In this document: in pieces, positions 10,974-55,623 of the stretch
Layout of the letters: each line of letters begins with the position of its first letter
Numbering within the stretch: position 1 is the first letter of the stretch
Origin: Lachnospiraceae bacterium
GTDB taxonomy: Bacteria; Bacillota; Clostridia; Lachnospirales; Lachnospiraceae
Length of the DNA: 57,076 bases
Direction: 5' to 3'
Assembly (NCBI GenBank): GCA_021205755.1
Contig: JAJPWX010000104.1
Coordinates: 1 to 57,076, forward strand
Made by a program: the position numbers and the translations under genes
Notes under the pieces: generated by a model
Databases searched by the model: none
What the model was told of the DNA's origin: nothing
The model's input: the letters and a program-made list of their open reading frames with translations, nothing else

Positions 10974-11125
10974 GAACGGCAAGCCACAGACCGCCTGCAA
11001 GCAGGCTATATGCCGCTTACACGTCATATGTCTGAGGCTGATGGACGTTTCGCCCATCCCAAAATGAAAATACAGCCCTTAGCAGATAAACCTGCACGGA
11101 CTGTCTTTTCATTTTGTTGCTGTTC
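10974..11125 (+). repeat. Structured dispersed repeat, copy A (malQ leader)
   Basis: This is one of four related copies of an element of about 155 bp. Closing arms GAACGGCA and TGCTGTTC bound it. Inside are a stem GCCACAGAC with GTCTGAGGC holding two hairpins (CCTGC/GCAGG and ATATG/CATAT), a short GC hairpin, and a long arm of AAAATGAAAA with TTTTCATTTT. A few pairs are broken compared with the other copies (for example GATGGAC against GCCCATC). It lies between the predicted malQ start of transcription and the malQ ribosome binding site, in forward orientation. Confidence 0.85.
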
Positions 11126-11163
11126 AAAACTGTTTTACAAAAACTTACAGAGGAGATTTCACT

Positions 11164-12711
11164 ATGACTGCTTATACTGCCCCATTTTCAGTGGAACCGG
11201 TTGATAAGCCGAAGCGTGTTCGCTTAAGCGGCATCCTGGCTCATCCGACTTCTTTTCCGTCTCCCTACGGGATCGGAGATCTCGGACCGGGTGCTTATGA
11301 TTTTGTTGATTTTCTGGAGAAATCCGGCCAGCATCTTTGGCAGGTACTGCCGCTTGGCCCGACGGGCTACGGGGACTCGCCTTATCAGGGACCGTCGGCT
11401 TTTGCCGGACAGCCGCTTCTGATCAGCCCGGATCTGCTGATCAAACAGAATCTGCTGACAAAGGAAGACGTGGCAGATATGCCCGAATGGGATGAGAATA
11501 AGATTGATTACGGTCCGGCGATTACCTTTAAAAATATGCTTTTGAAAAAAGCCTGGACTTCTTTTTTACATACGCCGGACAAGACGATGATTGAGGATTT
11601 TGAGGCATTCTGCGAAGAACAGAAGAGCTGGCTGGATGATTATACGCTTTTCATGGCGTGTAAGGATGCGCAGAAGGGCATTTCCTGGCTGGAGTGGGAG
11701 CCGGAGTTCCGGGATCCTTCTGAGAAGCAGAAAAAGGCGCTGCGCGCCGAGTTTGCTGAGCAGATTCGCTATTATGCGTTTCTGCAGTTTCTGTTCCAGG
11801 AGCAGTGGGACGCGCTGCGCACCTACGCAAATGAGAAGGGAATCCAGATCATCGGCGATATTCCGATTTTTGTTTCGCCGGACAGCGCCGATGTGTGGAG
11901 CAATAAAAAGCTGTTCCAGCTGGACGAGAAAGGCTATCCGAGCAAGGTGGCGGGCGTTCCGCCTGACTATTTCAGCGCGACCGGTCAGCTCTGGGGAAAT
12001 CCGCTCTATGACTGGGATTACCACGAGGAGACCGGCTATAAATGGTGGATTAACCGTGTGCGCCGTCAGCTCTCGCTGACTGATTTTCTGCGCATCGACC
12101 ATTTCCGCGGATTTGAGGCTTACTGGGCGGTTCCGGCGGGCGAAGAGACTGCCATCAATGGCCAATGGGTGAAAGGTCCGTGTGAAAAGCTGTTCCGTGC
12201 GATTGAAAAAGAGCTCGGCGAGGATCTCCCGATCTGGGCGGAGGACCTCGGCATTATCACGCCTGAGGTCGAACATCTGCGGGATTCGCTTGGTTTCCCG
12301 GGTATGAAGGTACTGCAATTTGGCTTTGGCGACATGAATGACACGACCTACATTCCGTTTTATTACACGACGACGAACTGCATCTGCTACACCGGTACCC
12401 ATGACAATGACACGACCGTCGGCTGGTACCAGTCACAGCCGGACATCATCCAGGACCGAATCCGCCGTCTGGCAAACGCGGATGGCAACAATGTCGGCCA
12501 TGATTTTATCTGCTTTGCCATGGGCAGCATCGCGAAATACGCAATTTTTCCGTTCCAGGATGTGCTGCAGCTCGGAAGCGAGGCGCGCATGAATACCCCT
12601 GGCGTCGCGATGGCGAACTGGGCGTTCCGTTTCAAAAAGAGCGACCTGCATGACGGACTCGCAAAATGGCTGCTGGAAGTAACGAAGTTATACGGAAGAT
12701 ATCAGAATTAA
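11164..12711 (+). CDS. malQ: 4-alpha-glucanotransferase (amylomaltase, GH77)
   Basis: The 515-residue cytoplasmic enzyme rearranges alpha-1,4-glucans, releasing glucose and building longer maltodextrins. Family motifs are clear: LPLGPTGYGDSPYQ near the N-terminus, FLRIDHFRGFEAYW with the catalytic nucleophile Asp, IWAEDLG with the acid/base Glu, and YTGTHDNDT near the C-terminus. The start ATG 11164 has GAGGAG 8 nt upstream. A good promoter lies 200 nt upstream, and the structured repeat copy A occupies the leader, so translation or transcript stability could respond to that structure. plsC follows on the same strand after 88 bp. Confidence 0.97.
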   Translation: MTAYTAPFSVEPVDKPKRVRLSGILAHPTSFPSPYGIGDLGPGAYDFVDFLEKSGQHLWQVLPLGPTGYGDSPYQGPSAFAGQPLLISPDLLIKQNLLTKEDVADMPEWDENKIDYGPAITFKNMLLKKAWTSFLHTPDKTMIEDFEAFCEEQKSWLDDYTLFMACKDAQKGISWLEWEPEFRDPSEKQKKALRAEFAEQIRYYAFLQFLFQEQWDALRTYANEKGIQIIGDIPIFVSPDSADVWSNKKLFQLDEKGYPSKVAGVPPDYFSATGQLWGNPLYDWDYHEETGYKWWINRVRRQLSLTDFLRIDHFRGFEAYWAVPAGEETAINGQWVKGPCEKLFRAIEKELGEDLPIWAEDLGIITPEVEHLRDSLGFPGMKVLQFGFGDMNDTTYIPFYYTTTNCICYTGTHDNDTTVGWYQSQPDIIQDRIRRLANADGNNVGHDFICFAMGSIAKYAIFPFQDVLQLGSEARMNTPGVAMANWAFRFKKSDLHDGLAKWLLEVTKLYGRYQN

Positions 12712-12799
12712 AAACGCTGCAGCATAGTAAATTGACACGATTACTCAAAGATAAAATCTTTTTTTCGGAATCATTCAGAAAGAAAGAGGCGATACTTTT

Positions 12800-13540
12800 A
12801 TGATTCGTTTTGTCTTAATCATTGCGTTCGTAACCTGCTTTCTGATCGCATCCATTCCGATTTTTCTGGCGGAATGGCTGATCGGAAAGCGCTGGCCTTA
12901 TGCGCGGGAGATCAGCTCCCTGCGGATTGTCCAGTGGGCGCTGAAGGTGATTGCGTGGCTGGCCGGAACCCGGCTTACTGTGATCGGGGAGGAGCATGTG
13001 CCAAAGGACACACCTGTCCTGTACATCAGTAACCACCGCAGTTATTTTGATATTATCCTCACCTACGCGCGCTGCCCGCGGCCAACGGGCTATGTCGCGA
13101 AAAAGGAAATGCTGAAAATCCCGCTGCTCTCCCGCTGGATGAAGTTTCTGCACTGTCAGTTCCTTGACCGCAGCGATCTGCGCGCGGGGCTGAAGATGAT
13201 TCTCTCCTGTGTGGATCTCATAAAAAATGGCGTCTCCATTACCATCTTTCCGGAGGGAACGCGCGGCAAAGGCAGCAATGAATTGGAGATGCTGCCCTTC
13301 CATGAAGGTTCCTTTAAAGTCGCGACCAAATCCGGCTGCCCGATCATCCCGATCGCGATCAGCGGATCCTCCGCGATCTTCGAAGACCATAAGCCTTACG
13401 TGCGCCGCAGGGACGTGACGATCGAATACGGCGCGCCGATTTACCCCGCGCAGCTCTCCAAGGAAGACCAGAAGGCACTCGGAAAGTATACGCAGGGAGT
13501 CATTGAAGAGATGTTGCGGGGACAGCTGCAAAGTATTTAA
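12800..13540 (+). CDS. plsC: 1-acyl-sn-glycerol-3-phosphate acyltransferase
   Basis: The 246-residue membrane enzyme should acylate lysophosphatidic acid to phosphatidic acid. An N-terminal hydrophobic helix is followed by the HX4D catalytic motif in SNHRSYFD and by FPEGTRGKG, the substrate-binding motif. Length is normal. The start ATG 12800 has GAAAGAGG upstream. It ends convergently with the flavoprotein gene; a weak hairpin (13544-13570) with a T-rich tail lies between them. A second plsC-like gene lies at 53754-54470. Confidence 0.93.
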   Translation: MIRFVLIIAFVTCFLIASIPIFLAEWLIGKRWPYAREISSLRIVQWALKVIAWLAGTRLTVIGEEHVPKDTPVLYISNHRSYFDIILTYARCPRPTGYVAKKEMLKIPLLSRWMKFLHCQFLDRSDLRAGLKMILSCVDLIKNGVSITIFPEGTRGKGSNELEMLPFHEGSFKVATKSGCPIIPIAISGSSAIFEDHKPYVRRRDVTIEYGAPIYPAQLSKEDQKALGKYTQGVIEEMLRGQLQSI

Positions 13541-13577
13541 TTCGTAACTATGAAGGGACTGAACAGTTACTTTAATT

Positions 13578-16070
13578 CTATTTTACCGGTACAAATTTCG
13601 CCTGGTTCATAAGCGGATGCTCCAGGCGAATTGCTCCTGGGCGCGGGCAAACCATGACACAGGCGCCGCAATAATAGCATTCTCCCGGATACGTGACGGA
13701 CGGATGCTGTCCTTTTTCCGGTGACGGAAGCAAAACATCACATTGGCATACCTGGGCACAGCGACCGCATCCGATACATAATTTTTCGTCATATTTGATC
13801 GGATTGACGCTGCATGGCACAGGGGTTGCAGTGAGATCAGCCGGTATCGGCATGGATTCCCCTATGATCTGATTCCATGTCTTGCCGCCTGCGGCCATTT
13901 CGGAATCTTTCTGATTCAGCCCTTCCTGATTTCGTTTCTCCTGGTTTAACACTTCCTGGTCTAACTTTTTCTGGTCTGACTCTTCCTTCCGTTTTATATA
14001 ATCCTGATTGTGTTTCTCGTACTCTTCCTTCAGATTCCCAAAGAAATCCAACGGCACACTTCTGGTCTTTACGTTTCCGTTTTCCTGCCGTATGACAATA
14101 TGCCTGCGATCCTGCTCGGGATCCATTTCCGGATAATCACTGCGCACGAAATACAGCGGCGCGGAGCTGGAGTGCCGTGCCAGAGAGGCATGCAGGACGA
14201 TCTGAGCCACAGTAAGAATGTCGAGCACCTCATGCGTACGCATCAGTTCATGCGGATTGGATGCGGTAAGGCGCGGGACAATCTCGCGCTCCAGGCTTTC
14301 CAGCAGATCTAACCCTTCCAGAAGCAGAGCCTCGCATTTTGTTCCGCCGCAATAGTTCTGCATTGCCTTGGCAATCGCCATGTTGAGTTCTTTCCATCCG
14401 ATGCCGTTCTCACGCTCTACATACAATGGGGCATAAAGCCTCTTTTGTTCCGCCTCTATATCCCTCTGGCTGATTGGCGCAAGAGAAGTCCGCGCGGCAT
14501 AATCTGCGGCTTTTCGTCCCGCGTAATGTCCGGTCGCGCAGGCAAATCCCGCGCAGTCGGAGGCGTAAAGCTGATCGCCCGCCGCATAAATACCGTCAAT
14601 ATTGGTTTTCAAATCCCAGTCATGCATAACGCCGCCGGGCGCGCCAAAAAACTGCCGCTCCTGCTCCAGGAAATTTGCGGACTGCCAGCCGGTGCCATAG
14701 CTTTGCAGCATATGCTTCCTGGGATCAAAGCCTCTGTCCGTATAATTCTGATAGATCGGAATCTTTGTTTTCGCTTCTTCTCCGACCATCATACCCCAGA
14801 TCACCCGGCGTTCCGCATCCGGCATTTTACTCAAATCCGCATAAAACGGAAGCTGATAACCGCGCTTCATCAATTCCTCGAAATCCAGGGTTTCCGGGCC
14901 GCGATACTCGTATTTCGGATTGTCAATCACGCCTCCTTTGAGGAAGAATTTCTGTCCTTCTGCCGGATAATACCGCTCGGAAACGGTCTTTAATTCTTTT
15001 CCGTCGCGGTCTACATACGGAATTTCCACGCCGCGCGCATCCACCATTGTGGCGGCATACCAGGTATTATGGTTGTTTCCGGCGCCATAGGGCGGAAAGC
15101 TCCGGCCTGCGGCGGAAAACTCGGCGCGCACGGATTTTTCCATCATTGTAAATTCCATGCCGGCGCGCCATCCCATCGCATGGCCGCTGCCGATGCTCTG
15201 CATGGGACGGAATTCACACAAGCCCGTGCAGTCTGCGTCAAACAGCCAGACACGGGAAGGACGGGACATGGCGAGCACCGTTGCTTTTGCCCGGAAAATA
15301 TAGAATTTCCCCGTGTGCACATCCATCCCCATTGCGCCCGCGCCGCGCAAAGAACATGACTCACCTTTCCTGTCTGCACCATACAGCGAGTCCGATTCTA
15401 CCTTTGCATCTGCACCATGCAGCGAACCTGATTGCTCGTTCGCGTCTGCGCCATGCAGCGAATCCGATTCTTCGTTGACATCAGCTCCTGGAGTTTCAGC
15501 AAAATCCCGCGCAACCAGCAGCGCGGTCGCTTCCGTGCGATCCATGATACGCACGCCAAGCCGTTTCAGTTCCTTTACCAGAGCAGGCTTAAACGTCGAT
15601 CCCCAGACACGAAGGGTATACCTGTTCTTGTAATCATATGCAAACATCAGCTTCGTCTTCTCGTCCCGGAATTCGGCGCCCTCGAATTCTCCTTCTGTGT
15701 CGCGCACCTTTCCTCCATAGGACTCGATATCCAGCAGGCGGTCATACCCTTCCCTGCATTCGATGTAATGCCCGATTCCATTGCTGTACCAGTCCTGTTC
15801 GTTCACATATGCTTCAGCGATCTCCTCCGGCGTAACACCGGAGCATGGGTTCGTACAGGCCGATTCCCAATGATCAAATCCGGTCCCCGCGGAACCGCTT
15901 TTTTCGGTGGCGCCTTTTTCCACAAGCGTCACAGAAAGCCCCTTTTGGGCTGCCGCGATTGCCGCAAAGCAGCCGGAAAGACCGCCCCCAAGCACGAGAA
16001 CGTCGCTTGTAATCGTTTCCTCCTGACCAATTTCATTTGCGTAAGGCCATAAAGCTTCTTTCTTCTCCAT
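13578..16070 (-). CDS. FAD-dependent oxidoreductase fused to a 2x[4Fe-4S] ferredoxin domain
   Basis: The 830-residue flavoprotein belongs to the fumarate reductase/succinate dehydrogenase flavoprotein superfamily, and resembles AprA-like enzymes. The FAD-binding motif VLGGGLSGCFAA lies near residue 27. The C-terminus has two ferredoxin clusters, CIGCGRCAQVCQC and CYYCGACVMVCP, from about residue 767. Two low-complexity insertions stand out: a 12-residue repeat (GADxxxESxSLH-like, about residues 195-242) and a Lys/Gln/Glu-rich stretch just before the ferredoxin part. It is downstream of the peptide transporter genes on the same strand but separated by three hairpins, so co-transcription is uncertain. 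The substrate cannot be told from sequence; reduction or oxidation of a peptide-derived organic acid is a guess. Confidence 0.85.
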   Translation of the reverse strand: MEKKEALWPYANEIGQEETITSDVLVLGGGLSGCFAAIAAAQKGLSVTLVEKGATEKSGSAGTGFDHWESACTNPCSGVTPEEIAEAYVNEQDWYSNGIGHYIECREGYDRLLDIESYGGKVRDTEGEFEGAEFRDEKTKLMFAYDYKNRYTLRVWGSTFKPALVKELKRLGVRIMDRTEATALLVARDFAETPGADVNEESDSLHGADANEQSGSLHGADAKVESDSLYGADRKGESCSLRGAGAMGMDVHTGKFYIFRAKATVLAMSRPSRVWLFDADCTGLCEFRPMQSIGSGHAMGWRAGMEFTMMEKSVRAEFSAAGRSFPPYGAGNNHNTWYAATMVDARGVEIPYVDRDGKELKTVSERYYPAEGQKFFLKGGVIDNPKYEYRGPETLDFEELMKRGYQLPFYADLSKMPDAERRVIWGMMVGEEAKTKIPIYQNYTDRGFDPRKHMLQSYGTGWQSANFLEQERQFFGAPGGVMHDWDLKTNIDGIYAAGDQLYASDCAGFACATGHYAGRKAADYAARTSLAPISQRDIEAEQKRLYAPLYVERENGIGWKELNMAIAKAMQNYCGGTKCEALLLEGLDLLESLEREIVPRLTASNPHELMRTHEVLDILTVAQIVLHASLARHSSSAPLYFVRSDYPEMDPEQDRRHIVIRQENGNVKTRSVPLDFFGNLKEEYEKHNQDYIKRKEESDQKKLDQEVLNQEKRNQEGLNQKDSEMAAGGKTWNQIIGESMPIPADLTATPVPCSVNPIKYDEKLCIGCGRCAQVCQCDVLLPSPEKGQHPSVTYPGECYYCGACVMVCPRPGAIRLEHPLMNQAKFVPVK
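15344..15487 (-). repeat. In-frame 36-bp tandem repeat inside the flavoprotein gene
   Basis: Four tandem units of 36 bp encode 12-residue repeats starting Gly-Ala-Asp, with a Ser-x-Ser-Leu core. They keep the frame and lie between FAD-domain strands, where the family normally has a short loop. Unit number may vary between strains. Confidence 0.8.
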
Positions 16071-21921: not shown

Positions 21922-22064
21922 GGATTTTTCCTCCCTTTGGGTGTGGCAATGTCCGACTTGCCATTTTTTACAAATCGGTAGTTTGTGAGTGACCGTTCCA
22001 AGCAACAGGCACCAATGGTGCGCAACGGATGAACCGCAGCCTGCTGTCCTGAGCATTTACATTT

Positions 22065-43057: not shown

Positions 43058-44626
43058 CTACATCACTGCTGTGGCGATTTTGCTCACAAACTGAATCAGC
43101 GGATTTGGGAACACGCCCAGAAGAATCGACAGCGCCGCAAAAATAGCCAGCGGAATCAGCATCCCAAGAGGCGCCTCGGTGACACCTGAGAGCGGATCCG
43201 TCTCCGCCTGTGTCTGGACAGCATCCGTTTCCGGGGAGGCGGCATTTTCAGCAGCAATAGCAACATGGGCATTCGATTTTACCTTCGGGAAAAATCCATT
43301 GGTCACAATCGAGAGCAGATATCCCGCCGTCAGCAAAGCAGACAAAAGCAGCACTGCCGGTCCTGCCCAGCCAAAGACACCCACGTTTGCCTCCAGCGCT
43401 CCCTGCGCCAGATACCATTTGCTGATAAAGCCGCTTGCAGGCGGAATGCCTACCAGAGCAAGGGAAGCAAATGTAAAGCACCAGAGCGTCTTCGGCATTT
43501 TTTTGCCGATGCCCTCCAGCTGATCCACCTCTGAAAGCCCCGCCCGATAGATAAAGATTCCGGCGGTTAAAAACAGGGCGCATTTGATAAATGCGTGGAA
43601 GACCACATGCAGCAACGCGCCTTCCATACCGGTCGGAGAAAGGACAGACAACCCGAACAAAATATAGGACACCTGGCTGACCGTGGAATACGCCAGACGC
43701 TTTTTCACCACCTTTTCGCGGAACGCAAGCATTGAACCCATAAATACGGTAAGCAGTGACAGAGTCATCCACGCCGTCTGCACCCAGGTGCTGCGGATAA
43801 AGTCCGCACCCACAATATAAAATACCACCCGGACAATCGAAAGCACACCAGCCTTTGCGATGATACCGGAAAGAACCGCCGAAGCCGGAGCCGGAGCAAC
43901 CGGATGCGCGGTCGGCAGCCACGCGTGCAGCGGAAACATACCGGCTTTTGCGCCAAAACCGATCAGAGCTGCCATCACCGCCGCCAAGAGAATTCCCGTA
44001 TGCCCCTGTGCCAGTGCCAGGTTCAGAGTGCCTCCGGCTGTAAAGGTGATCGAGTCACAGTATTTATATAGGAAGAAAATCGCAAACAGGCCGAGGTACG
44101 CGCCGCACATAGAGTAAAACAAATATTTCAGCGCCGCCATGATTGACTCACGCGTACCACTGTGCAGCACCATCGGCATCGAAGTCAGCGTCATCAGCTC
44201 ATAAAACAGATACATCGTCACCAGATTACCGGAAAAGCAGAGCGCCACCAGCACTCCATAGACAATCAGATAAAACCCGAAGAACCGCCGCTCCTTTCCC
44301 TCATGCTCCATGTAGGTAAACGCGTAAAAGCACACCAGTACCCAGGCAATGCTGAACACTGTCACAAACAGACGGCTGACGTCGTCCACCTGGAAATAGA
44401 TCGGGATTCCCTCCATCAGTTCAAACCAGGTATAAGTATTATCCCCCGACCAGGCCGCCAGAAGCGCCAGTACCGCAGAAACAATCAGCACAGCCGCAGT
44501 CACTGTGTGCAAACGGGTCAGGCTTTCCTTGCTGCTATCTCCAACATCTTCCTGCTTTACAGGCAAAAGAAGCAATACGCCTGCGATAACCGGCAGAAAA
44601 ACCGGTATCAAAATCCAGATTCCCAT
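43058..44626 (-). CDS. NuoM/MrpD-type ion-translocating membrane subunit
   Basis: The 522-residue antiporter-like protein has key residues in FYELMTLTSMPMVLH (Glu), FGAKAGMFPLHAWLPTAHPVAPAPASAVLSGI (Lys) and SGFISKWYLAQGAL (late Lys). It resembles the 523-residue neighbour in length, start (PVFLPVIAGVLLLLP) and the acidic linker before the last helices, so the two probably arose by duplication. The structured repeat copy B lies directly upstream and separates this gene from the preceding subunit by 212 bp, the only large gap in the operon. Confidence 0.92.
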   Translation of the reverse strand: MGIWILIPVFLPVIAGVLLLLPVKQEDVGDSSKESLTRLHTVTAAVLIVSAVLALLAAWSGDNTYTWFELMEGIPIYFQVDDVSRLFVTVFSIAWVLVCFYAFTYMEHEGKERRFFGFYLIVYGVLVALCFSGNLVTMYLFYELMTLTSMPMVLHSGTRESIMAALKYLFYSMCGAYLGLFAIFFLYKYCDSITFTAGGTLNLALAQGHTGILLAAVMAALIGFGAKAGMFPLHAWLPTAHPVAPAPASAVLSGIIAKAGVLSIVRVVFYIVGADFIRSTWVQTAWMTLSLLTVFMGSMLAFREKVVKKRLAYSTVSQVSYILFGLSVLSPTGMEGALLHVVFHAFIKCALFLTAGIFIYRAGLSEVDQLEGIGKKMPKTLWCFTFASLALVGIPPASGFISKWYLAQGALEANVGVFGWAGPAVLLLSALLTAGYLLSIVTNGFFPKVKSNAHVAIAAENAASPETDAVQTQAETDPLSGVTEAPLGMLIPLAIFAALSILLGVFPNPLIQFVSKIATAVM

Positions 44627-44671
44627 AGTCTCCTCCTTATCCTTTTTCCTTTTGCTGCTCTTTCGTACGTA

Positions 44672-44832
44672 TCAGCGCAGCAGGCCACAGATCGCCTGCT
44701 ATGCAGGCTATATGCCGCCTTCAGCGTCATATGTCTGTGGCTCGCTGGGCGTTCCGCCCATCCCAAAAGGAAACCGCATCCCTTCGCAGATAAATCTGCG
44801 AGGTCTGCTCTTTCCTTTTGCTGCTGCGCTGA
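44672..44832 (+). repeat. Structured dispersed repeat, copy B (inside the ion-transport operon)
   Basis: Closing arms TCAGCGCAGCA and TGCTGCGCTGA form an 11-bp stem in which two base pairs differ from the other copies on both sides. The long arm is CAAAAGG with CCTTTTG, again changed on both sides. The sub-hairpins CCTGC/GCAGG and ATATG/CATAT are kept. The 15-mer TTTCCTTTTGCTGCT occurs both inside the element (44811-44825) and just outside it (44645-44659). The gene start of the downstream subunit is 45 bp away on the minus strand. Confidence 0.85.
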
Positions 44833-44837
44833 ACTGG

Positions 44838-46343
44838 TTATCCGAACATCTCTAATCCCTGGGTGAGCATGTTTACGATCGGCTCTGAAAAGAGTCCCAG
44901 TATCAGGTTCAGCACTACGAACAGCGCCAGCACTACCGCTTTCTGCGGCTGCTCTTTCACCGTAATCACCCGGCTGTCTGTTTCTATGTTCGCCCGGTGC
45001 GCCGGTGTGTAAATACGAATAACAGTCTTCATAAAATAAATCGCGTTCAGCAACGTACTCAGGGCCAGCGCAATCATTGCCGGAATCAGTTTGCCTGAGG
45101 TATCATAGGCCGCCGAGGCAAATAACACCTTTGAAATAAAGCCGGAAAACAACGGAATGCCGACCATCGAGAGCGAGCCGGCCGTAAAGGCGACTCCTGC
45201 GGCTTTATTGCGGTAGCCGGAGCCGGTGAGTGCAAAAAAGTCTGTGTCATGGTTTGAGACATCCATCAGGCCGGAGGCCGATACAAAAAGCATGGATTTT
45301 GTCGCCGCATGGCTCAGGATGTGGAACAGGCTGGCAATGATTCCCGCCGTCGTCCCCAGGCCAAAGCCCATATAGATGTAACCGATCTGCGCCACAGACG
45401 ACCAGGCGATCATCCGCCGGATGTTGCTTTCCCGGATCGCGCTCAGCGAACCGAAAATCATCCCCATGACGCCAAATACAAACAGTACATTAATTACCTT
45501 GCTCTCGCGGATCACATCGAACCCAATCACGCGGTAAAAAATCTTGACCACCAGGAAAATGTAGCCCTTGGATACCAGGGAAGATAAAATCGCTGAGGAC
45601 GACAGAGTGGAATAACCGTAAGCGTCCGGTACCCAGGAATGGAACGGAAACAGGGCGCTTTTGATCGCAAGTCCCACCGACATCAGTGTGATTGAGATCA
45701 GCAAAGGAATATGATACTCTCCTGTCTCCGCCAAAACCGCCACCTGCTCTTTGATATTGCTCATCAGCAGATGCCCGGTCAGATCGTACAGATAGCAGAT
45801 CCCCATCAGCAGAAGGCCGGACCCCAGAAGGCTCATAATCATATACCGTGTCGCCGCCTCAATCGCGCGGCCGTTCTGGCGGATCATGATCAGCCCGCAG
45901 GCGGAAATGGTGTTAATCTCGACAAAAACATAAGCAGTAAACAGGTCGTTCGTATAGATCAGGGCGAGCAAAGAAGAAAGCAGCAGCCCAATCATCACAT
46001 AATAAAGATTCTGCTTGGTCTCCTCGACCTCTTCCGCCAGTTCTTTGCGGCCACCGAGCATACACAGCAGCATGACCACGCAGAAAAACACTGCCATAAA
46101 CGCTTCCAGCACACCGACACGGATCTCATTGCCCCAGGGTGCGGAGAAATGGCCCATCTGATAAACATAGGCCTCGCCGGTCTGCAGGGTAAACAGAAGC
46201 ACCGCGACAGACATTACCAGAATCAGCGCAATCGATATCGTGTTCACCCATTTCGCTGCTTTGCTTTTTAACACAGAGCAGAGCGGCCCGGAAAACAGCG
46301 CCATGATAATGGTCAGGAAGGGAAAATTCTGAACGAATTCCAT
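44838..46343 (-). CDS. MrpD/NuoN-type ion-translocating membrane subunit
   Basis: The 501-residue antiporter-like protein follows mnhC, as MrpD does in Mrp operons. Key residues are in FVEINTISACGLIMI (Glu), VGLAIKSALFPFHSWVPDAYGYS (Lys), LVSKGYIFLVVKIFY and SGFISKVLFASAAY (late Lys). The start ATG 46341-46343 has GGAGG 7 nt upstream and overlaps the mnhC stop as TGATG; GTG 46346 is less likely. It is the closest of the four large subunits to MrpD by context. Confidence 0.92.
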   Translation of the reverse strand: MEFVQNFPFLTIIMALFSGPLCSVLKSKAAKWVNTISIALILVMSVAVLLFTLQTGEAYVYQMGHFSAPWGNEIRVGVLEAFMAVFFCVVMLLCMLGGRKELAEEVEETKQNLYYVMIGLLLSSLLALIYTNDLFTAYVFVEINTISACGLIMIRQNGRAIEAATRYMIMSLLGSGLLLMGICYLYDLTGHLLMSNIKEQVAVLAETGEYHIPLLISITLMSVGLAIKSALFPFHSWVPDAYGYSTLSSSAILSSLVSKGYIFLVVKIFYRVIGFDVIRESKVINVLFVFGVMGMIFGSLSAIRESNIRRMIAWSSVAQIGYIYMGFGLGTTAGIIASLFHILSHAATKSMLFVSASGLMDVSNHDTDFFALTGSGYRNKAAGVAFTAGSLSMVGIPLFSGFISKVLFASAAYDTSGKLIPAMIALALSTLLNAIYFMKTVIRIYTPAHRANIETDSRVITVKEQPQKAVVLALFVVLNLILGLFSEPIVNMLTQGLEMFG

Positions 46344-46720
46344 CACATACCCTCCTTTTTTATCTGCGTGGAAATCTCATCCAGGTTCAGTGTGTGATAC
46401 CTGCGGTACAGACGAATGGTCAGCGACAGCATCAGCGCGGATACCGACACAGAAACCACGATGCCCGTCAGCACCAGTCCACTCGGAATCGGGTTAATAT
46501 AAGCGTCCACGCTCTGCACTCCATCCGTCACGATCGGCGCCTTATGCCCCTCTATGTAGCCCTTCAGTGCAAGGAACAGATAGATCGCCGTATCCATGAT
46601 GTTCATGCCAATGATTTTTTTGATCAGGTTCGGCTGCAAAAGCAGGTTCGAAAACCCGATTACAAACAGAATCATCGCGACCGCTTCTTCATAATTATCC
46701 AGTAAGTTGGCAAAATTCAT
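46343..46720 (-). CDS. mnhC: Na+/H+ antiporter subunit C (NuoK-like)
   Basis: The 125-residue membrane protein has three helices, as is typical for MnhC/MrpC and NuoK. Family marks are FVIGFSNLLLQPNLIKKIIGMNIMDTA and DPIPSG-like INPIPSGLVLTGIVVSVSVSALMLSL. It is a core subunit of the Mrp antiporter membrane arm. It is tightly coupled to the downstream MrpD-like gene. Confidence 0.93.
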   Translation of the reverse strand: MNFANLLDNYEEAVAMILFVIGFSNLLLQPNLIKKIIGMNIMDTAIYLFLALKGYIEGHKAPIVTDGVQSVDAYINPIPSGLVLTGIVVSVSVSALMLSLTIRLYRRYHTLNLDEISTQIKKEGM

Positions 46721-49505: not shown

Positions 49506-50864
49506 CTATGTATTCTGCCCGACCAGTGAAATCGACATCCATTTCCCCTGGGCATACCGCCACATACAGGTCAGCGCCGTAATCAGCCAGGTCAGACCGG
49601 TCGTGTACCAGACGGCCCAATACCCGATGGAAGGGATTCTCGAGAGAATCAGAGAAAATCCCACGCGCCCGATCACTTCCACAATGCCGCTGATGAACGC
49701 AAAGGTCGAATCACCTGCCCCGTTCAGAAGATTCCGCGGCAGATGGATCATACCGAGCGGGAAATAAAACAGCGCTGTGATGCGAATCGCCCTGCCGCCG
49801 ATCGCGATAACGTTTCCGTCATCCACAAAAAGCCGGACAAACGAATTGCCAAAGAAATACATCATCAGCAGCATAAGCGCACTGAAAACCGCAACAATCA
49901 GTACACTGCTGCAGAAGCCTTTTTTCACCCGTTCTACTTTCCCCGCGCCAAGGTTCTGGCCGGTAAATGTCGCAAGCGCCGCTCCCAGCGAGTTAAACGG
50001 CTGCTGCACCAGCGACTCAATTCGGGAGGTCGCTGTGAAAGCCGCAATCACATCCTCCCCAAACTGGTTAATCACCGCCTGCAAAATCACACAGGAGAGC
50101 GCAATCAGAGAGCCCTGCGCACCAAAGGGAATGCCAAGACGCAGACACTTCCCAATGATCATGCGGTTTGGTCTGAAATCCTGCTTTGACAGTTTGAAAT
50201 ATGGATTCGTCCTCACTGCGTAGATGATACAGGCCACTGCCGAAAGCAGCTGCGCGCCAATCGTAGCAATCGCCACTCCGGCTACTCCCAGATGACACAC
50301 CAGTACCAGCACCAGGTCTCCAATCACATTCAGAACGCTGGCTACAATCAAAAAGATCAATGGTGTAGCAGAATCGCCCAGTGCACGCAGCATGGCGGCA
50401 ATCCCATTGTAAAGTCCGGTGAAAACCACACCTGCACAGGCAATCCGCAGATACAGCAGGGCATCCTCAAAAATAGCCTCTGGAGTCCCAAGAAGCTGTA
50501 GAATCGGCCTGGAAAAAGCCACCGACACAACGCTTACGATCAGACTCATACCAAGGATCGGATAAATCGAATTCCCGATGACGTTTTTTACCATTTTCTC
50601 ATCTTTATTACCAAAATACTGCGCGATCAGGACGCCCGTCCCGTTCGCAAAACCAGCGACCAGTGAAAAAAACATATAGAGCAAAGAGGAACACGCCCCG
50701 ACCGCCGCCAGCGCGTTTTTCCCTACATAATTACCCACTACAATGGAATCCACCATGTTATAAAACTGCTGAAAAAGGTTCCCGACCAGCATCGGCATCG
50801 CAAAAATCAGCAGCAGTGCTGTCTCATTTCCCACCGTCAGGTCTCTTATATGCTGCTTTTTCAT
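49506..50864 (-). CDS. MATE-family efflux transporter
   Basis: The 452-residue, 12-helix exporter of the multidrug and toxin extrusion type begins with FAMPMLVGNLFQQFYNMVDSIVVG, the family N-terminal signature. The matching second-half motif is FGAQGSLIALSCVILQAVINQFG. It should use an ion gradient to export small, often cationic compounds. The start ATG 50862-50864 follows AGGAGGG. It is upstream of the Mrp-like operon on the same strand, but a separate promoter appears to drive the latter. Confidence 0.94.
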   Translation of the reverse strand: MKKQHIRDLTVGNETALLLIFAMPMLVGNLFQQFYNMVDSIVVGNYVGKNALAAVGACSSLLYMFFSLVAGFANGTGVLIAQYFGNKDEKMVKNVIGNSIYPILGMSLIVSVVSVAFSRPILQLLGTPEAIFEDALLYLRIACAGVVFTGLYNGIAAMLRALGDSATPLIFLIVASVLNVIGDLVLVLVCHLGVAGVAIATIGAQLLSAVACIIYAVRTNPYFKLSKQDFRPNRMIIGKCLRLGIPFGAQGSLIALSCVILQAVINQFGEDVIAAFTATSRIESLVQQPFNSLGAALATFTGQNLGAGKVERVKKGFCSSVLIVAVFSALMLLMMYFFGNSFVRLFVDDGNVIAIGGRAIRITALFYFPLGMIHLPRNLLNGAGDSTFAFISGIVEVIGRVGFSLILSRIPSIGYWAVWYTTGLTWLITALTCMWRYAQGKWMSISLVGQNT

Positions 50865-51133
50865 ACTCTTCTGTGTCCCTCCTGAATCTATGAAAGTGAT
50901 TTGAAACTAACAATATTCTATTCAGGAAATGGAAAATGTCAAGGGGGAAATTTAAAATAATTCGTATATAAATATGTAAAAATCTCTGAACAATATTTTA
51001 AAACACATTTATTATTTTCTTGCTTTATTTTTGAATATATGTTACTATTTATCTATTGTTTATATTATGATTACATTCTTACCTGTTATTATTTTAAAAT
51101 TCTTTCTTGATTTTTTCTATTTTCATTCGCCCA
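50865..51133. other. AT-rich intergenic DNA, no feature recognised
   Basis: Between the divergent MATE and hicA genes the DNA is strongly AT-rich, with no frame carrying a ribosome binding site. The promoter of the MATE gene must lie here but was not clear. Confidence 0.5.
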
Positions 51134-51162
51134 TTGACACACGTATTTGCACGTGTTAAACT
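51134..51162 (+). promoter_or_regulatory. hicAB promoter with an operator in the spacer
   Basis: TTGACA (51134-51139), a 17-nt spacer and TAAACT (51157-51162) form the promoter. The perfect inverted repeat ACACGT-N6-ACGTGT (51139-51156) fills the spacer. HicB proteins with a ribbon-helix-helix tail repress their own operon, so this is a probable HicB operator. Confidence 0.7.
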
Positions 51163-51184
51163 CACTACATATGAAAGGGATTTC

Positions 51185-51367
51185 ATGAAAACATCAGAAT
51201 TAACAAAATTACTCAAAAATGGGGGTTGTTATATTGTGCGGCAGGGAAGTAACCATACCATCTGGTTTAGTCCGGTAACAAACATCCAATTTGCTGTTCC
51301 AAGGCATAAGGGAGAAATCAAAACAGGAACTGCAAACAATATTCTCAAAGACGCTGGTATTAAATAA
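51185..51367 (+). CDS. hicA: HicA-type mRNA interferase toxin
   Basis: The 60-residue toxin starts MKTSELTKLLKNGGCYIVRQGSNH in the usual HicA double-stranded-RNA-binding-like fold; the catalytic His is in GSNHTIW. It continues FAVPRHKGEIKTGTANNILKDAGI, the standard ending. The start is ATG 51185 with AAAGGGA upstream; the frame from 51107 runs through the promoter. hicB follows after 52 bp on the same strand. Confidence 0.95.
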   Translation: MKTSELTKLLKNGGCYIVRQGSNHTIWFSPVTNIQFAVPRHKGEIKTGTANNILKDAGIK

Positions 51368-51419
51368 TTTGCTTCTATAAATTTACAATATACTTTTTCT
51401 CTTGAAAGGGGGAAATACT

Positions 51420-51818
51420 TTGTCCAAATACGCTTATCCCGCTATTTTTACTCCAGAATCAGATGGCGGCTACTCAATCGTTTTTCCCGATCTGGAAGGC
51501 TGCTATACATGCGGCAATAATATGGCAGACGGACTCATGATGGCAGAGGATGTCCTGGCGCTTGTACTCTACGGTTATGAATCCGATGGCCGCGCAATTC
51601 CTGCCCCTTCATCCGCTTCTGCTTTTACGTTAAAAGAGAGAGAATTCGTAAACTATGTTGCCTGTGATACTCTGACATACCGTAAAATTCACAACAACAA
51701 AGCAGTCAAAAAGACTCTCACTATTCCGGAATGGCTGAATGAAGCTGCTTCTGAAGCTGGCATCAACTTTTCTCAAGTGCTTCAGGATGCATTAAAAACG
51801 CAGCTTCATCTCGTATAG
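51420..51818 (+). CDS. hicB: HicB-type antitoxin with ribbon-helix-helix domain
   Basis: The 132-residue antitoxin has an N-terminal HicB fold (YPAIFTPESDGGYSIVFPDLEGC). The C-terminal DNA-binding part, KKTLTIPEWLNEAASEAGINFSQVLQDAL, is of ribbon-helix-helix type. The start is probably TTG 51420, with GGGGG 7 nt upstream. It should neutralise HicA and repress the operon at the operator in the hicA promoter. Confidence 0.93.
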   Translation: MSKYAYPAIFTPESDGGYSIVFPDLEGCYTCGNNMADGLMMAEDVLALVLYGYESDGRAIPAPSSASAFTLKEREFVNYVACDTLTYRKIHNNKAVKKTLTIPEWLNEAASEAGINFSQVLQDALKTQLHLV

Positions 51819-51841
51819 CTTTTTCATGAGTGATGACAATC

Positions 51842-51875
51842 GACCGTCTGATATGCCAGAACATTTCAGACGGTC
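51842..51875. terminator. Hairpin between hicB and spoVAE
   Basis: GACCGTCTGA and TCAGACGGTC form a perfect 10-bp stem with a 14-nt loop between two converging genes. The U-tract is missing on both sides, so it is a probable but not typical terminator. Confidence 0.5.
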
Positions 51876-51897
51876 AGTCAATCATCTGTAGTAATCC

Positions 51898-52254
51898 TCA
51901 CTCCTTCATCTTCGGCTTAAAGATCCAGCTCGCGATGTAAGAAAAAATCAGCGCTGCACTGATGCCAACAGCGCTCGCTTTCAATCCGCCCGCAAACAAT
52001 CCCAGCAACCCTTTATCGTCCACTGACTCCTTCACGCCCTTCCAGAGTGTATTCCCAAATCCGAGCAAGGGCACGGACGCTCCAGCTCCGGCGAAATCAA
52101 TCAGCTTCTCATACCATCCCAAAGCACCTAATACAGCGCCCAGACACACCAAAATCACCATCACCCGGCCCGGCATCAGTTTTGTCTTCTCTAATAATAT
52201 CTGCACAAGGGCGCAGATCAGGCCGCCCACCAGAAATGCTTTTATATAATCCAT
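51898..52254 (-). CDS. spoVAE: Stage V sporulation protein AE
   Basis: The 118-residue membrane protein starts MDYIKAFLVGGLICALVQILLEKTKLMPGRVMV and carries PLLGFGNTLWKGVKESVDDKGLLGLFAGGL, the SpoVAE (AEB type) signature. It has about four helices. SpoVA proteins form the inner-membrane channel that moves dipicolinic acid into the developing spore and releases it at germination. It follows spoVAD after 75 bp. Confidence 0.94.
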   Translation of the reverse strand: MDYIKAFLVGGLICALVQILLEKTKLMPGRVMVILVCLGAVLGALGWYEKLIDFAGAGASVPLLGFGNTLWKGVKESVDDKGLLGLFAGGLKASAVGISAALIFSYIASWIFKPKMKE

Positions 52255-52314
52255 AGAACATTTTACCTCCTCTGCAAATCATTATGAGTGACTTTCCATT
52301 ACTATTTACGGCGA

Positions 52315-52335
52315 GCCTGACACTTGCTGTCAGGC
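52315..52335 (-). terminator. Hairpin at the end of spoVAD
   Basis: GCCTGACA and TGTCAGGC form an 8-bp stem over the spoVAD stop codon. It may limit read-through to spoVAE or protect the message end. Confidence 0.45.
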
Positions 52336-53442
52336 TGCGCCAGAACACGTTTCGTATATGTGATGACTCTCCAGCATTACCGCATGCGCGATCCCTGGCA
52401 CCGTCTGCCCCTCGTTAAAGCTTACCTTTGAGAGCAGCGCCCCAGTTGGCACAAACAATACCCGTTTCCACTCACCCGTCTCGAGTTTCGGCAGAATCAT
52501 AGCTGCAAGAACAACCGCTGAACAACCGCAGCCGCTCCCGCCTGCGTGGGTGTCCTGTTTTTCTTTGTCATAAATCTCAATTCCACAGTCCATGTGCTGT
52601 TTGCTTATGTCATATCCCTTTTCTTTCATCAGATCCAGCAGAATCCGCTGGCCGATCTCGCCCAGGTCGCCCGTGATGATCCGGTCATAATCCTCTGGCT
52701 GATAATTGAAATCCATCAGGTTCTGGTAAATCGTGTCCGCCGCCGCGGGCGCCATGCAGGCGCCCATATTCATATTGTCGCGCACCCCCATATCCACGAC
52801 CCGTCCCGGCGTCGCTCCGCGCACGATTATACAGCCTTCTATAAAGTCCTGCTCTTCGCGTTTTAAGTCATTATCTGAAGCGGAATCAGAGGCGTCTCTG
52901 CACCCGGCGGACAATACAAAGGCGCCGCTCCCGGTGACCGTCCAGGTAGCTGACAGGGGACGCTGGTTTCCATATCCCAGGGGAAAACGAAACTCCTTCT
53001 CGGCGCTGCCAAAGTGACTGGAGGTCACCGCCGCCGCATAGTCCGCATATCCACCAGCCACTGCCATCGCCGCAAGCGTTAGCGATTCCCCGCAGGTCGA
53101 ACACGCGCCGTACAGGCCAAAAAACGGGGTATCCGCATTTGCAGTTCCGCCTCCAAAAGAAGTGGCGATGATCTGCGCGAGCAAATCTCCTCCATATAGA
53201 TACCGAATCTGCCACGCTTCCAGATGCGCCTTTCCGATTGCCATCTGCAGCGCTTCCTTCTGCATCGTACTTTCTGCCTTTTCCCAGGTATCCTCACCAA
53301 ATTCCGCCTCATCCGCAACCAGGTCAAAATAGTCTCCGAGCGGTCCTTCTCCCTCTTTCGGCCCGACCACGGAAGCCGCGCCTACAATCTGCGGGGCGTT
53401 TTCAAATTCCATACTCCGGCTGCCCTTCATTTGATTGATCAT
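52330..53442 (-). CDS. spoVAD: Stage V sporulation protein AD
   Basis: The 370-residue thiolase-like protein binds dipicolinic acid for uptake into the spore. Marks include NAPQIVGAASVVGPKEGEGPL, ATSFGGGTANADTPFFGLYGACSTCGESL and GGSGCGCSAVV. The start is the ATG at 53440-53442 with GGAGG 8 nt upstream; the frame to 53571 runs into the structured repeat copy C. spoVAC, normally just upstream, is absent: a repeat, a terminator and a plsC gene are found instead. Confidence 0.95.
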   Translation of the reverse strand: MINQMKGSRSMEFENAPQIVGAASVVGPKEGEGPLGDYFDLVADEAEFGEDTWEKAESTMQKEALQMAIGKAHLEAWQIRYLYGGDLLAQIIATSFGGGTANADTPFFGLYGACSTCGESLTLAAMAVAGGYADYAAAVTSSHFGSAEKEFRFPLGYGNQRPLSATWTVTGSGAFVLSAGCRDASDSASDNDLKREEQDFIEGCIIVRGATPGRVVDMGVRDNMNMGACMAPAAADTIYQNLMDFNYQPEDYDRIITGDLGEIGQRILLDLMKEKGYDISKQHMDCGIEIYDKEKQDTHAGGSGCGCSAVVLAAMILPKLETGEWKRVLFVPTGALLSKVSFNEGQTVPGIAHAVMLESHHIYETCSGAA

Positions 53443-53471
53443 GTGCATTCCCTCCTGAACCTTTTTGCTTT

Positions 53472-53500
53472 TATTCTGCCCGGTTTGCGGAAAAATATTA
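53472..53500 (-). promoter_or_regulatory. Possible sigma-G promoter of spoVAD
   Basis: On the minus strand TAATA, a 17-nt spacer and CAGAATA resemble the sigma-G boxes GMATR and CATNMTA, each with one mismatch. The position about 30 bp before spoVAD and the forespore role of the gene support it. It would lie downstream of repeat copy C. Confidence 0.4.
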
Positions 53501-53512
53501 CTTTCGATGCTG

Positions 53513-53674
53513 TTTTGAACAGCAAGCCACAGACCACCTGCTTCGCAGGCTATATGCCGCTTACGCGTCATATGTCTGAGGCTTGATGGGCGTTTCGCCC
53601 ATCCCGAAATGAAAAGACAGTCCTTAGCAGGTAAACCTGCACAGACTGTTTTTTCATTTCGATGCTGTTCAAAA
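53513..53674 (+). repeat. Structured dispersed repeat, copy C (upstream of spoVAD)
   Basis: Closing arms TTTTGAACAGCA and TGCTGTTCAAAA form a perfect 12-bp stem. The long arm starts CGAAATG and ends CATTTCG, a paired change from copy A. Its tip is GCAGG/CCTGC, where copies B and D have GCAGA/TCTGC. A 13-mer, TTTCGATGCTGTT, occurs at both edges (53502-53514 and 53657-53669). Confidence 0.87.
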
Positions 53675-53684
53675 CTGTTACTAC

Positions 53685-53725
53685 AAAAAAAAAGCAGAAC
53701 CAGACATTTCTGAATGGTTCTGCTT
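53685..53725 (-). terminator. Terminator of the second plsC gene
   Basis: On the minus strand AAGCAGAACCA and TGGTTCTGCTT form an 11-bp stem followed by nine T residues. It lies between plsC and repeat copy C. Confidence 0.88.
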
Positions 53726-53753
53726 CTGTATCCGTTCGAATATTTGCGTATCT

Positions 53754-54470
53754 CTACGCCGCCTCACACTCCGCGATTTTTGCTTCAATCCGCTCTTTTA
53801 CCATCTCCGCGATCTGCACGGTCTTCATCCCCTTATATTCTTCATAAGGAATCGGGTCAAGAAAATGCGCCTGCACCGTCACGCGATCAATCGAACCGGT
53901 ATCCATCGCCTTATAAGAATCAATCAACGCTACCGGTACAATCGGGCACTGCGCCTTTGTCGCGCTTTTAAAGCTGCCGCCTTTAAAATCCAGCAGCTGG
54001 TTGCCATTACGGCTGCGCGTTCCCTCCGCAAAAACAATATATTTACCGCCCTTTTTCACGTCTTCCGCGACCTGAAGGACAACCTGCAGCCCCTGACGGG
54101 CGTCGGAACGATCCAGAGCAAGAGCACCCAGGCAGATAATAATCTGCTTCAGAACCGGAATTTTTACAAGCTCCTGTTTCAGAACCGCGGAAATCGGCGT
54201 CTCATGCAGCTTAATCAAAACCATAACATCAAATAACCCCTGATGATTCGGGTACAGGATATACCCTCCCTCTTTGGGCAGATTCTCGACTCCGGTCGAA
54301 ACTACGTCCACGCGGCCGCCTTTGATACCGCGCTCCGCGATCTCATGAACCACTGCATATCGCTGTTCTACCGTATAGCGTTCCGGATGCGCCGCCCTTG
54401 TCATCAGCTGAAAAAACACTCTGGGCACATGAATCAGGTTCATAAAAAACATCCAGATGATTCGTTTCAT
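53754..54470 (-). CDS. PlsC-type 1-acyl-glycerol-3-phosphate acyltransferase
   Basis: The 238-residue membrane acyltransferase has the catalytic NHQGLFD motif and the FAEGTRSRNG motif, with a basic hydrophobic N-terminus. It is probably a second lysophosphatidate acyltransferase; alternative acceptors are possible. The start ATG 54468-54470 follows AGGAGG. It ends at its own strong terminator. It is 74 bp downstream of a HAD phosphatase gene and may share a transcript with it. Confidence 0.92.
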   Translation of the reverse strand: MKRIIWMFFMNLIHVPRVFFQLMTRAAHPERYTVEQRYAVVHEIAERGIKGGRVDVVSTGVENLPKEGGYILYPNHQGLFDVMVLIKLHETPISAVLKQELVKIPVLKQIIICLGALALDRSDARQGLQVVLQVAEDVKKGGKYIVFAEGTRSRNGNQLLDFKGGSFKSATKAQCPIVPVALIDSYKAMDTGSIDRVTVQAHFLDPIPYEEYKGMKTVQIAEMVKERIEAKIAECEAA

Positions 54471-54544
54471 TGCAATATTTCCTCCTTATTTTCCAACCAA
54501 TTTCCACACCGAAATGAATCGTTTACTGTTCTGTACCTTCCCAG

Positions 54545-55186
54545 TTACCCAAACATTTCTTTTAGCTCAGGAAATGTCGAAATTTCCGCCTCCGCATGAT
54601 CCACAGTTCCAAAGCCATATTTTGCAAAGATCATCGGAATCCCAGCTTCCTTTGCCGCATCCGCATCCCCCTGCGTATCTCCGACGTAAACTGGTGATTG
54701 CAGGCCATTGCGCTCCATCAAAAGACGGATGTTGTCGCTTTTTCCTTTTCCGGTATTTCCATAACACTCGATATCCTTAATAAAAGGAGCAAGTCCGGTC
54801 TTTTCCAGAAACAGTTCAATATAGCCCTTCTGGCAGTTGCTCACAATAAAAAGCGGAAGTACACCGGAAAGCTCTCGGATGGTCTCCTCCACACCGGGAT
54901 AGCAAATCCGGCATTCGTCCTCCTCTAATACCTGATGCTCATAGACACAGCAGGCATCCATAATACGGCTCCGGTGCTCTACCGTCAGATCCGGCAGCAG
55001 ATGCGCTGCAATGACATCCATCGTCCTTCCAAAAAGTGCCTGCAGCATCTGGGGCGTCACCGTCCTCTCTGGGCAGCCATTTTCCTGCACCGCCCGCGTC
55101 CAGGCCTTTGCCACAAGCCCCGTAGAATTCCACAGAGTGCCGTCCACGTCCAGAATGATACCGTCTATTTGCTCTTTCCTTATCAT
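54545..55186 (-). CDS. HAD-superfamily hydrolase (phosphoglycolate-phosphatase-like)
   Basis: The 213-residue cytoplasmic phosphatase has the HAD motif I LDVDGTLWNS, motif II FIVSNCQKG, and motif III/IV in GKGKSDNIRLLM and VYVGDTQGDADAAKEAGIP. An alpha-helical cap lies between motifs I and II. Length and motifs fit phosphoglycolate phosphatase or related sugar-phosphate phosphatases. The start ATG is at 55184-55186. Substrate is not predictable. Confidence 0.92.
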   Translation of the reverse strand: MIRKEQIDGIILDVDGTLWNSTGLVAKAWTRAVQENGCPERTVTPQMLQALFGRTMDVIAAHLLPDLTVEHRSRIMDACCVYEHQVLEEDECRICYPGVEETIRELSGVLPLFIVSNCQKGYIELFLEKTGLAPFIKDIECYGNTGKGKSDNIRLLMERNGLQSPVYVGDTQGDADAAKEAGIPMIFAKYGFGTVDHAEAEISTFPELKEMFG

Positions 55187-55309
55187 TGTCTCTTTCTCCC
55201 CCCCTGACTTCCTGGAATGGAAGCCATTACCTTTTTCAAATTCCTCTTAAAAGCTTACCATAGTTTCCCCTCGTAAGTCAACGGAAAGATGAAATCGCGT
55301 TATTATACA

Positions 55310-55339
55310 TTGACAAACTTTCCTTCCCATAAGTAAAAT
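55310..55339 (+). promoter_or_regulatory. Promoter with a long leader before the response regulator
   Basis: TTGACA (55310-55315), an 18-nt spacer and TAAAAT (55334-55339) form a good sigma-A promoter. Transcription from here would give a leader of about 300 nt holding repeat copy D. The rest of the gap (55187-55309) shows nothing clear. Confidence 0.6.
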
Positions 55340-55468
55340 AGGAATAAACAAATACAGCACGAAAATACCCCAGTATCTTTCGAAAATCTTTTGATTTTCT
55401 TTGGATTTTGTTTTTTATTCCAACCATTTGTTCTTTTGTTTTCACTGTTAAGATATGTGTAACAGTTC

Positions 55469-55623
55469 AGAACAGCATCAAAATGAAAAGACAGACTGTG
55501 CAGATTTATCTGCTAAAGGCTGTATTTTCATTTTGAGATGGGCGGAACGCCCATCAGCCACAGACATATGACGCGTTAGCGGCATATAGCCTGCGTAGCA
55601 GGCGGTCTGTGGCCTGCTGTTCT
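55469..55623 (-). repeat. Structured dispersed repeat, copy D (response-regulator leader)
   Basis: This is the best-paired copy. Closing arms are AGAACAGCA and TGCTGTTCT. The long arm pairs 55479-55494 with 55520-55535. A GATGGGCG/CGCCCATC hairpin lies at 55537-55555. The stem GCCACAGAC/GTCTGTGGC (55557-55613) encloses hairpins at 55566-55587 and 55589-55603. It is in reverse orientation relative to copies A, B and C, and ends 22 nt before the response-regulator start codon. Confidence 0.87.

What the first reader, a model, noticed from the sequence alone, without database searches (positions are those of the whole stretch)
10974..55623. A four-copy structured repeat of about 155 bp with compensatory base changes
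Copies lie at 10974-11125, 44672-44832, 53513-53674 and 55469-55623 (the last inverted). All can fold into the same multibranch shape: a closing stem, a long arm with a GCAG-type tip, a GC hairpin, and a stem holding two hairpins. Paired changes are visible. The closing stem is GAACAGCA/TGCTGTTC in C and D but GCGCAGCA/TGCTGCGC in B. The long arm is CAAAATG/CATTTTG in A, CGAAATG/CATTTCG in C and CAAAAGG/CCTTTTG in B. The tip is GCAGA/TCTGC in B and D but GCAGG/CCTGC in C, with A showing the mispaired intermediate. This argues for selection on the fold, or for copying of a functional palindrome. I do not recognise it as a known RNA or mobile element family.
Basis: seen in the sequence. Interest (0 to 1): 0.85.

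Follow-up and report, generated by a model that had tools for sequence, protein, structure and literature searches.

The report
Family-wide folded mini-transposon (MITE)
The repeat is a small non-coding jumping DNA element, 176 bases when complete, found in many bacteria of one gut-dwelling family; it keeps one many-branched hairpin shape even where most stems have changed sequence, which makes it a natural test of how matching changes arise in hairpins.

Summary
The four copies and their paired changes are real. Better-kept copies elsewhere show a full unit of 176 bp with 19-bp imperfect inverted ends (GTAACNNTTCNGAACAGCA) and an 8-bp AT-rich target duplication. Two reciprocal empty sites between sister genomes prove insertion. 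It is a MITE. The own genome holds 46 model matches and 152 end matches. The fold reaches further than the sequence: 41 of 47 genus genomes and 26 of 299 sampled family genomes match, with 8-bp duplications in other genera. Covariation is strong (49 of 59 pairs). G-U pairs are rare (14 of 3143 inner cells, against 21 of 268 in tRNA stems), and young copies carry whole-pair switches (6 paired, 3 unpaired stem changes). This points to DNA palindromes, probably renewed by hairpin-templated copying, more than to selection on one RNA strand. A ~51-bp hairpin module sits at none to three fixed sites. GTAA ends with 8-bp duplications are the IS66 signature, but no transposase with these ends was found.

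The parts
10963..11136 (+). Copy A, worn ends; 28 bp before the start of a 4-alpha-glucanotransferase gene (11164)
   Evidence: E 1.4e-47; gene by Pfam
44664..44840 (+). Copy B, worn ends; in the gap between two same-strand proton-antiporter subunit genes (43058-44626 and 44838-46346, both -)
   Evidence: E 2.9e-47; genes by Pfam
53506..53681 (+). Copy C, 176 bp, right end GTAAC intact, left end worn; between a SpoVAD gene and an acyltransferase gene (the SpoVAD reading frame as listed starts inside the copy; a later start is likely)
   Evidence: E 8.2e-54; genes by Pfam
55459..55633 (-). Copy D, one exact end (55459-55477), other end worn; upstream of a response-regulator gene (the frame as listed starts at 55609, inside the copy; a later start is likely)
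   Evidence: E 2.6e-52; gene by Pfam
53663..53681 (-). Inverted end (TIR) of copy C, one mismatch to GTAACNNTTCNGAACAGCA
53514..53673 (+). Closing stem of copy C: 53514-53524 pairs with 53663-53673
   Evidence: consensus fold, coordinates
53527..53581 (+). Forked stem of copy C (53527-53534 with 53574-53581) that holds two hairpins: 53536-53550 and 53552-53573
53587..53601 (+). GGGCG hairpin of copy C; site 2 of the ~51-bp module in longer relatives
53605..53661 (+). Long arm (53605-53623 with 53643-53661) and GCAG tip (53627-53631 with 53636-53640) of copy C

Best explanation
The repeat is a miniature inverted-repeat transposable element (MITE). SHOWN: it has 19-bp imperfect inverted ends that begin GTAAC, duplicates 8 bp of AT-rich target, leaves clean empty sites in sister genomes, and occurs in tens of copies; its body is a nested set of palindromes (closing stem, forked stem with two hairpins, GC hairpin, long arm with tip) kept across genera. 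INFERRED: a DDE transposase acts in trans, most likely of the IS66 type (GTAA ends, 8-bp duplication). INFERRED: when the palindromes are single-stranded in replication they fold, and one arm is copied from the other (template switching); this switches both partners of a pair in one step, leaves loops free to vary, and lets hairpin modules and internal deletions arise in place. NOT SHOWN: what keeps the whole layout across genera; a need for the folded form, as DNA or in transcripts of either strand, is likely.
For: Ends: 152 matches, reversed control 0. Duplication: 76 elements, mean 5.34 of 8 against 3.08 (sd 0.14) shuffled, 29 of 76 at 7-8 against mean 1.1, maximum 6. Empty sites, reciprocal, 98% identity, no gaps. 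Same hallmarks in another genus: 6 of 9 G097 copies with 8/8 duplications. Covariation: 26 of 59 pairs on A1, 49 of 59 on A2, 47 of 59 on A3. G-U rare. Whole-pair switches in 23 young copies: 6 paired and 3 unpaired stem changes, random expectation 0.19 paired. Module gain or loss, deletions and one paired switch at the same insertion site in two genomes. IS66 signature from PMC11946415 (passages) and from two of ten IS66 loci of this genus.
Against: No transposase with these ends: IS66 is absent from the own genome and from the other copy-rich genomes G015, G019, G020, G021, and the 30 IS66 loci scanned carry no pair of MITE-like ends (several are cut at contig ends). Other DDE families were not searched. 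28 of 76 elements match at 4 or fewer of 8 flank bases. Of the 30 divergent genus loci L260-L289, one main element showed a duplication of 7 or more (L276). Gene conversion between copies could spread paired variants. A-C exceeds G-U on the + strand in the genus (24 to 7, 32 to 14), a weak hint of tolerance for G-U on the - strand, reversed in other genera (23 to 32).
Confidence: 0.72

Rival explanations
1. A functional structured RNA is carried by the mobile element, and selection on the RNA fold causes the compensatory changes.
For: Layout and pairing conserved across genera at 56-78% identity to L011; folds far better than shuffles.
Against: G-U in 14 of 3143 inner cells in the genus, against 21 of 268 in tRNA stems; 32 of 1285 in other genera. 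Both strands fold about equally well. No Rfam match. Copies lie on both strands. No expression data were available.
Confidence: 0.15
2. The folded form is needed for transposition or host tolerance, so selection on single-stranded DNA, or on transcripts of both strands, keeps the pairs.
For: Watson-Crick pairing on both strands and long-range conservation of the layout.
Against: Whole-pair switches in nearly identical copies: the body of L019 differs from L011 only by one A-T to T-A switch. Forms of 109-115 bp sit between 7/8 duplications, though they may be deletions in place.
Confidence: 0.3
3. REP-like palindromes moved by a Y1 (IS200/RAYT-type) transposase.
For: Two Y1 transposase genes in the own genome.
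Against: Fixed 8-bp target duplication and long inverted ends, which Y1 elements do not make (recalled knowledge).
Confidence: 0.02
4. The paired changes are spread by gene conversion between the many copies, so each variant arose once and looks recurrent.
For: Tens of copies per genome; the paired variant in L027 also occurs in other copies.
Against: Conversion spreads but does not create a paired change; the L019 switch occurs in one of the 62 aligned copies.
Confidence: 0.15

Closest known systems
Bacterial MITEs derived from DDE insertion sequences
   Same: Short, inverted ends, fixed target duplication, tens of copies, empty sites.
   Different: The body keeps one multibranch fold across genera and gains hairpin modules; no autonomous partner was found. 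That MITE bodies are usually short-lived is recalled, from no call.
IS66-family insertion sequences
   Same: GTAA ends and 8-bp duplications: literature passages (PMC11946415) and two elements of this genus, L252 2304-5077 and L259 149-2978.
   Different: The rest of the end differs (GTAAACG... against GTAACNRTTCAG...), and the MITE has no transposase.
bcr1-bcr3 repeats of Bacillus cereus
   Same: Intergenic, mobile, MITE-like, high copy, often within transcripts (passages of PMC6542083 and PMC3446304). That bcr1 is about 155 bp and folds is recalled.
   Different: bcr mobility is linked to a TTTAT motif in the B. cereus group; here GTAAC ends, 8-bp duplications, Lachnospiraceae.
Template-switch mutations in RNA hairpins (PMC8794818)
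   Same: Paired changes in one event, loop changes and new hairpins by insertion (passages).
   Different: That study is on RNA genes; here the substrate is a mobile DNA palindrome.
BOX elements and attC sites (recalled, no call)
   Same: BOX: modular hairpin repeat; attC: conserved by shape more than by sequence.
   Different: Neither is known to combine GTAAC ends and an 8-bp duplication; no direct comparison was run.

Membership tests
MITE | Terminal inverted repeats | tested here: met
   152 end matches against 0 in the reversed control; 46 facing pairs of 38-366 bp in the loci fetched by then
MITE | Target duplication of fixed length | tested here: met
   8 bp, 76 elements
MITE | Insertion shown by empty sites | tested here: met
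   two reciprocal sites
MITE | No own transposase; moved by an autonomous partner with the same ends | tested here: inconclusive
   unit of 176 bp; no partner among IS66 loci; the listing was cut and other DDE families were not searched
IS66-derived element | Ends begin GTAA and target duplication is 8 bp | tested here: met
IS66-derived element | End sequence shared with an IS66 element | tested here: not met
   no pair of such ends in 30 IS66 loci; two intact IS66 have other ends
Known structured RNA (Rfam 15) | Match at gathering score | tested here: not met
   0 in the window; none over the element in L012 at E up to 5
Selected RNA fold on one strand | G-U tolerated, A-C not, on the working strand | tested here: not met
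   G-U 7 and A-C 24; 14 and 32; 32 and 23 in other genera
REP/RAYT palindromes | Y1 transposition without target duplication | tested here: not met
   8-bp duplication; the Y1 property is recalled
bcr1-type repeats | TTTAT motif at the ends | tested here: not met
   ends are GTAAC with variable 8-bp flanks; motif from PMC6542083 passages

The most novel reading that the evidence does not exclude
A structure-dependent class of MITE spread through the Lachnospiraceae: the multibranch palindrome itself, as extruded single-stranded DNA or as RNA of either strand, is needed for mobility or for tolerance by the host, so it is conserved like an attC site, by shape and not by sequence; and the element grows by nesting hairpin modules into its own hairpins.
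Probability: 0.3. Interest if true: 0.82.

Novelty: new variant of a known kind. Interest (0 to 1): 0.62.

Why it matters
Compensatory changes are commonly read as proof of a selected RNA. Here they sit in a mobile DNA palindrome, as whole-pair switches with few G-U intermediates, so covariation alone would mis-call it as an RNA gene. The family offers many dispersed copies, orthologous pairs and empty sites in which template switching, gene conversion and selection can be told apart. A MITE body conserved in shape across some 25 genera suggests an unknown role of the fold in transposition or host tolerance.

Tried and rejected
IS66 partner: PF03050 absent from the own genome, present in 21 of 47 genus genomes; the 30 loci fetched show no pair of MITE-like ends (single sites with 3-5 mismatches only, several loci cut at contig ends), a wider end search gave nothing convincing, and a comparison to find element borders was not usable. 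Two of ten larger IS66 regions gave intact elements with other ends. Long end pairs: L214 (1284 bp), L127 and L176 enclose host genes, by the ORF lists. The listing of exact ends in eight genomes shows no facing pair of 0.7-3.5 kb, but it was cut: G019 in part, G020 and G021 not at all.

Readings of mine that later calls changed: the G243 end match looked like chance, but the model found a full-length copy on another contig of that genome; restriction to the genus, suggested by the end pattern (2 of 348), does not hold for the fold (26 of 299). Whether short forms transpose as such is open: two are deletions in place (L071 against L132, L076 against L162). Plasmids, phages (one copy, blastn) and viral contigs (one exact core pattern): no match.

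Literature (open-licence PubMed Central): searches for MITE with IS66, MITE with Lachnospiraceae, MITE with Firmicutes and compensatory, and nonautonomous cruciform repeat families listed no paper that by title or abstract start treats this element. Only passages of PMC8794818, PMC6542083, PMC11946415, PMC3281130 and PMC3446304 were seen.
Full report
WHAT IS THERE. The four copies were read directly and placed by a covariance model at 10963-11136, 44664-44840, 53506-53681 (+) and 55459-55633 (-). A search of the own genome (4.02 Mb, 136 contigs) with copy A gave 51 full or partial places. Better-kept copies show a longer repeat: GTAACTATTCAGAACAGCA ... TGCTGTTCTGAACTGTTAC, 176 bp. The end pattern GTAACNNTTCNGAACAGCA occurs 152 times (76 per strand, up to 2 mismatches), its reversed control 0 times; only the first part of the places was listed, and those were fetched.

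MOBILITY. 76 elements with facing ends (up to 3 mismatches each, 38-340 bp, no nested ends, deduplicated by flank; 37 from the own genome, 39 from named MAGs, none of them a window copy) agree in their flanks only in the frame of an 8-bp duplication: mean 5.34 of 8 against 3.08 (sd 0.14) after shuffling, 29 of 76 at 7 or 8 against a shuffle mean of 1.1 and maximum of 6; 28 of 76 match at 4 or fewer. Two empty sites are exact: the element at L161 7077-7252 (AAAATAAA on both sides) is absent from L182, and the one at L182 4444-4619 (AAATTCGA) is absent from L161, 98% identity, no gaps. Two other candidate sites were less clean. Five copies are identical over 176 bp: two in the own genome, two in MAG C.8_1, one in MAG U.2_6.

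SPREAD. The end pattern with up to one mismatch matches 22 of 47 genus genomes; exact, 2 of 348 family genomes. Model R1, built from 62 copies, matches 41 of 47 genus genomes at E up to 0.001, 46 places in the own one, and 26 of 299 family genomes in 25 of 298 genera, the own one included, at E up to 1e-5, with at most nine candidates scored per genome. In g52 (G097), 6 of 9 fetched copies have 8/8 duplications, one 7/8, one 1/8, and one lies at a contig end; in g57 (G102), 3 of 5 fetched have 7 or 8; in G246, 2 of 7 fetched have 7/8 in a 203-bp frame; in G188, none of 3 showed an end pair. Of 30 divergent loci of the own genus (L260-L289), one main element (L276) showed 7/8. No match in viral contigs, plasmids or phages.

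FOLD. One intact copy folds with z -11.8 as RNA on one strand and -11.0 on the other. A G097 copy, 78% identical to L011, gives the same layout, z -14.2 as DNA. On A1 (MAFFT, 62 rows, 59 distinct) 98.2% of cells pair and 26 of 59 pairs change on both sides; slid partners pair in 34-41%. On A2 (70 rows, genus) 94.2% and 49 of 59; two-sided cells 428 against 43-81 slid. On A3 (38 rows, mostly other genera) 91.2% and 47 of 59; 364 against 40-76. A2 and A3 were fitted to the model and lean towards it. The outer part of one inner hairpin is not kept outside close relatives.

RNA OR DNA. On the working strand of a selected RNA, G-U should be tolerated and A-C not. A1 inner stems: Watson-Crick 2931, G-U 7, A-C 24, other 11. 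A2 inner stems, three unconserved pairs left out: 3046, 14, 32, 51. Other genera: 1121, 32, 23, 109. Stems of 12 tRNAs from the fetched loci: 247 Watson-Crick, 21 G-U. The excess of A-C within the genus would read as G-U on the - strand; it is small and reverses in other genera. Among 40 of 62 rows (those with 1-8 body differences to the nearest neighbour) loops changed 102 times in 49 columns, stems 20 times singly and 10 times as whole pairs in 48 pairs. In 23 of 62 rows chosen for intact ends, the stem changes are 6 paired and 3 unpaired; random placement gives 0.19 paired, and none of 200,000 draws reached 6. Orthologous copies L027 and L137 differ by an A-T/T-A switch in the long arm, among other changes. 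This fits hairpin-templated copying as proposed for RNA genes (PMC8794818, passages); gene conversion can spread such variants, and selection on DNA or on both strands is not excluded.

MODULES AND DELETIONS. In the named MAGs the lengths of end-bounded elements cluster at 174-176, 226-229, 276-279 and 328 bp, with 51, 64 and 216 as exceptions (45 pairs), because a ~51-bp hairpin module sits at none to three fixed places. At one insertion site one genome has the module and another lacks it (L027/L137, L116/L131), or one has 279 or 176 bp where the other has 49 or 57 (L071/L132, L076/L162). The module's core pattern occurs 40 times in the own genome (up to 1 mismatch; control 4); whether it also stands outside the element was not checked place by place.

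PARTNER. GTAA ends with 8-bp duplications are the IS66 signature (PMC11946415, passages), and two intact IS66 elements of this genus show it, with other end sequences. No IS66 gene is in the own genome. Only PF03050 and PF01797 were searched, so the partner stays unknown.

VERDICT. A MITE: well supported. Fold conserved by shape: well supported. Single-step paired change: likely. Partner and role of the fold: open.

Noticed in passing
L099:877-1011, L144:141-314, L214:2188-2321, L183:1087-1136: A second MITE family with the same kind of ends and 8-bp duplications (6-8 of 8) but an unrelated palindromic body, one copy (L144) with an extra hairpin nested in a stem-loop.
   Followed up: partly
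window 21988-22060 (-): A worn end-like sequence GTAAATGCTCAGGACAGCAGGC... in the gap before a solute-binding-protein-like gene, perhaps a decayed short form.
   Followed up: no
L101:1052, L127:2885: A solo end lies directly before a ribosome-binding-site-like stretch and start codon, with matching flanks in two genomes.
   Followed up: no
L291:1501-1676 (G243:C18): A full-length copy in a genome of another genus, 95.6% identical over 135 bp to a copy in the own group: recent transfer or contamination of the assembly.
   Followed up: partly
A1 columns 40-42 (copy C 53542-53544): The loop triplet of the first inner hairpin varies greatly among otherwise near-identical copies.
   Followed up: partly
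G015 contigs C13, C36, C46, C111, C124, C148, C178; G000:C101 end: Contigs begin or end within about 60 bp of an element end, so copies break assemblies and copy numbers are lower bounds.
   Followed up: no
L179:3514-3689 against L185: Orthologous copies differ only by multi-base changes at two facing places at the base of one stem, as a template switch might leave.
   Followed up: no
L024, L025, L026 (upstream of the copies): An extra copy of the right arm lies just before the element, with the same local sequence variant as the element's own arm.
   Followed up: no
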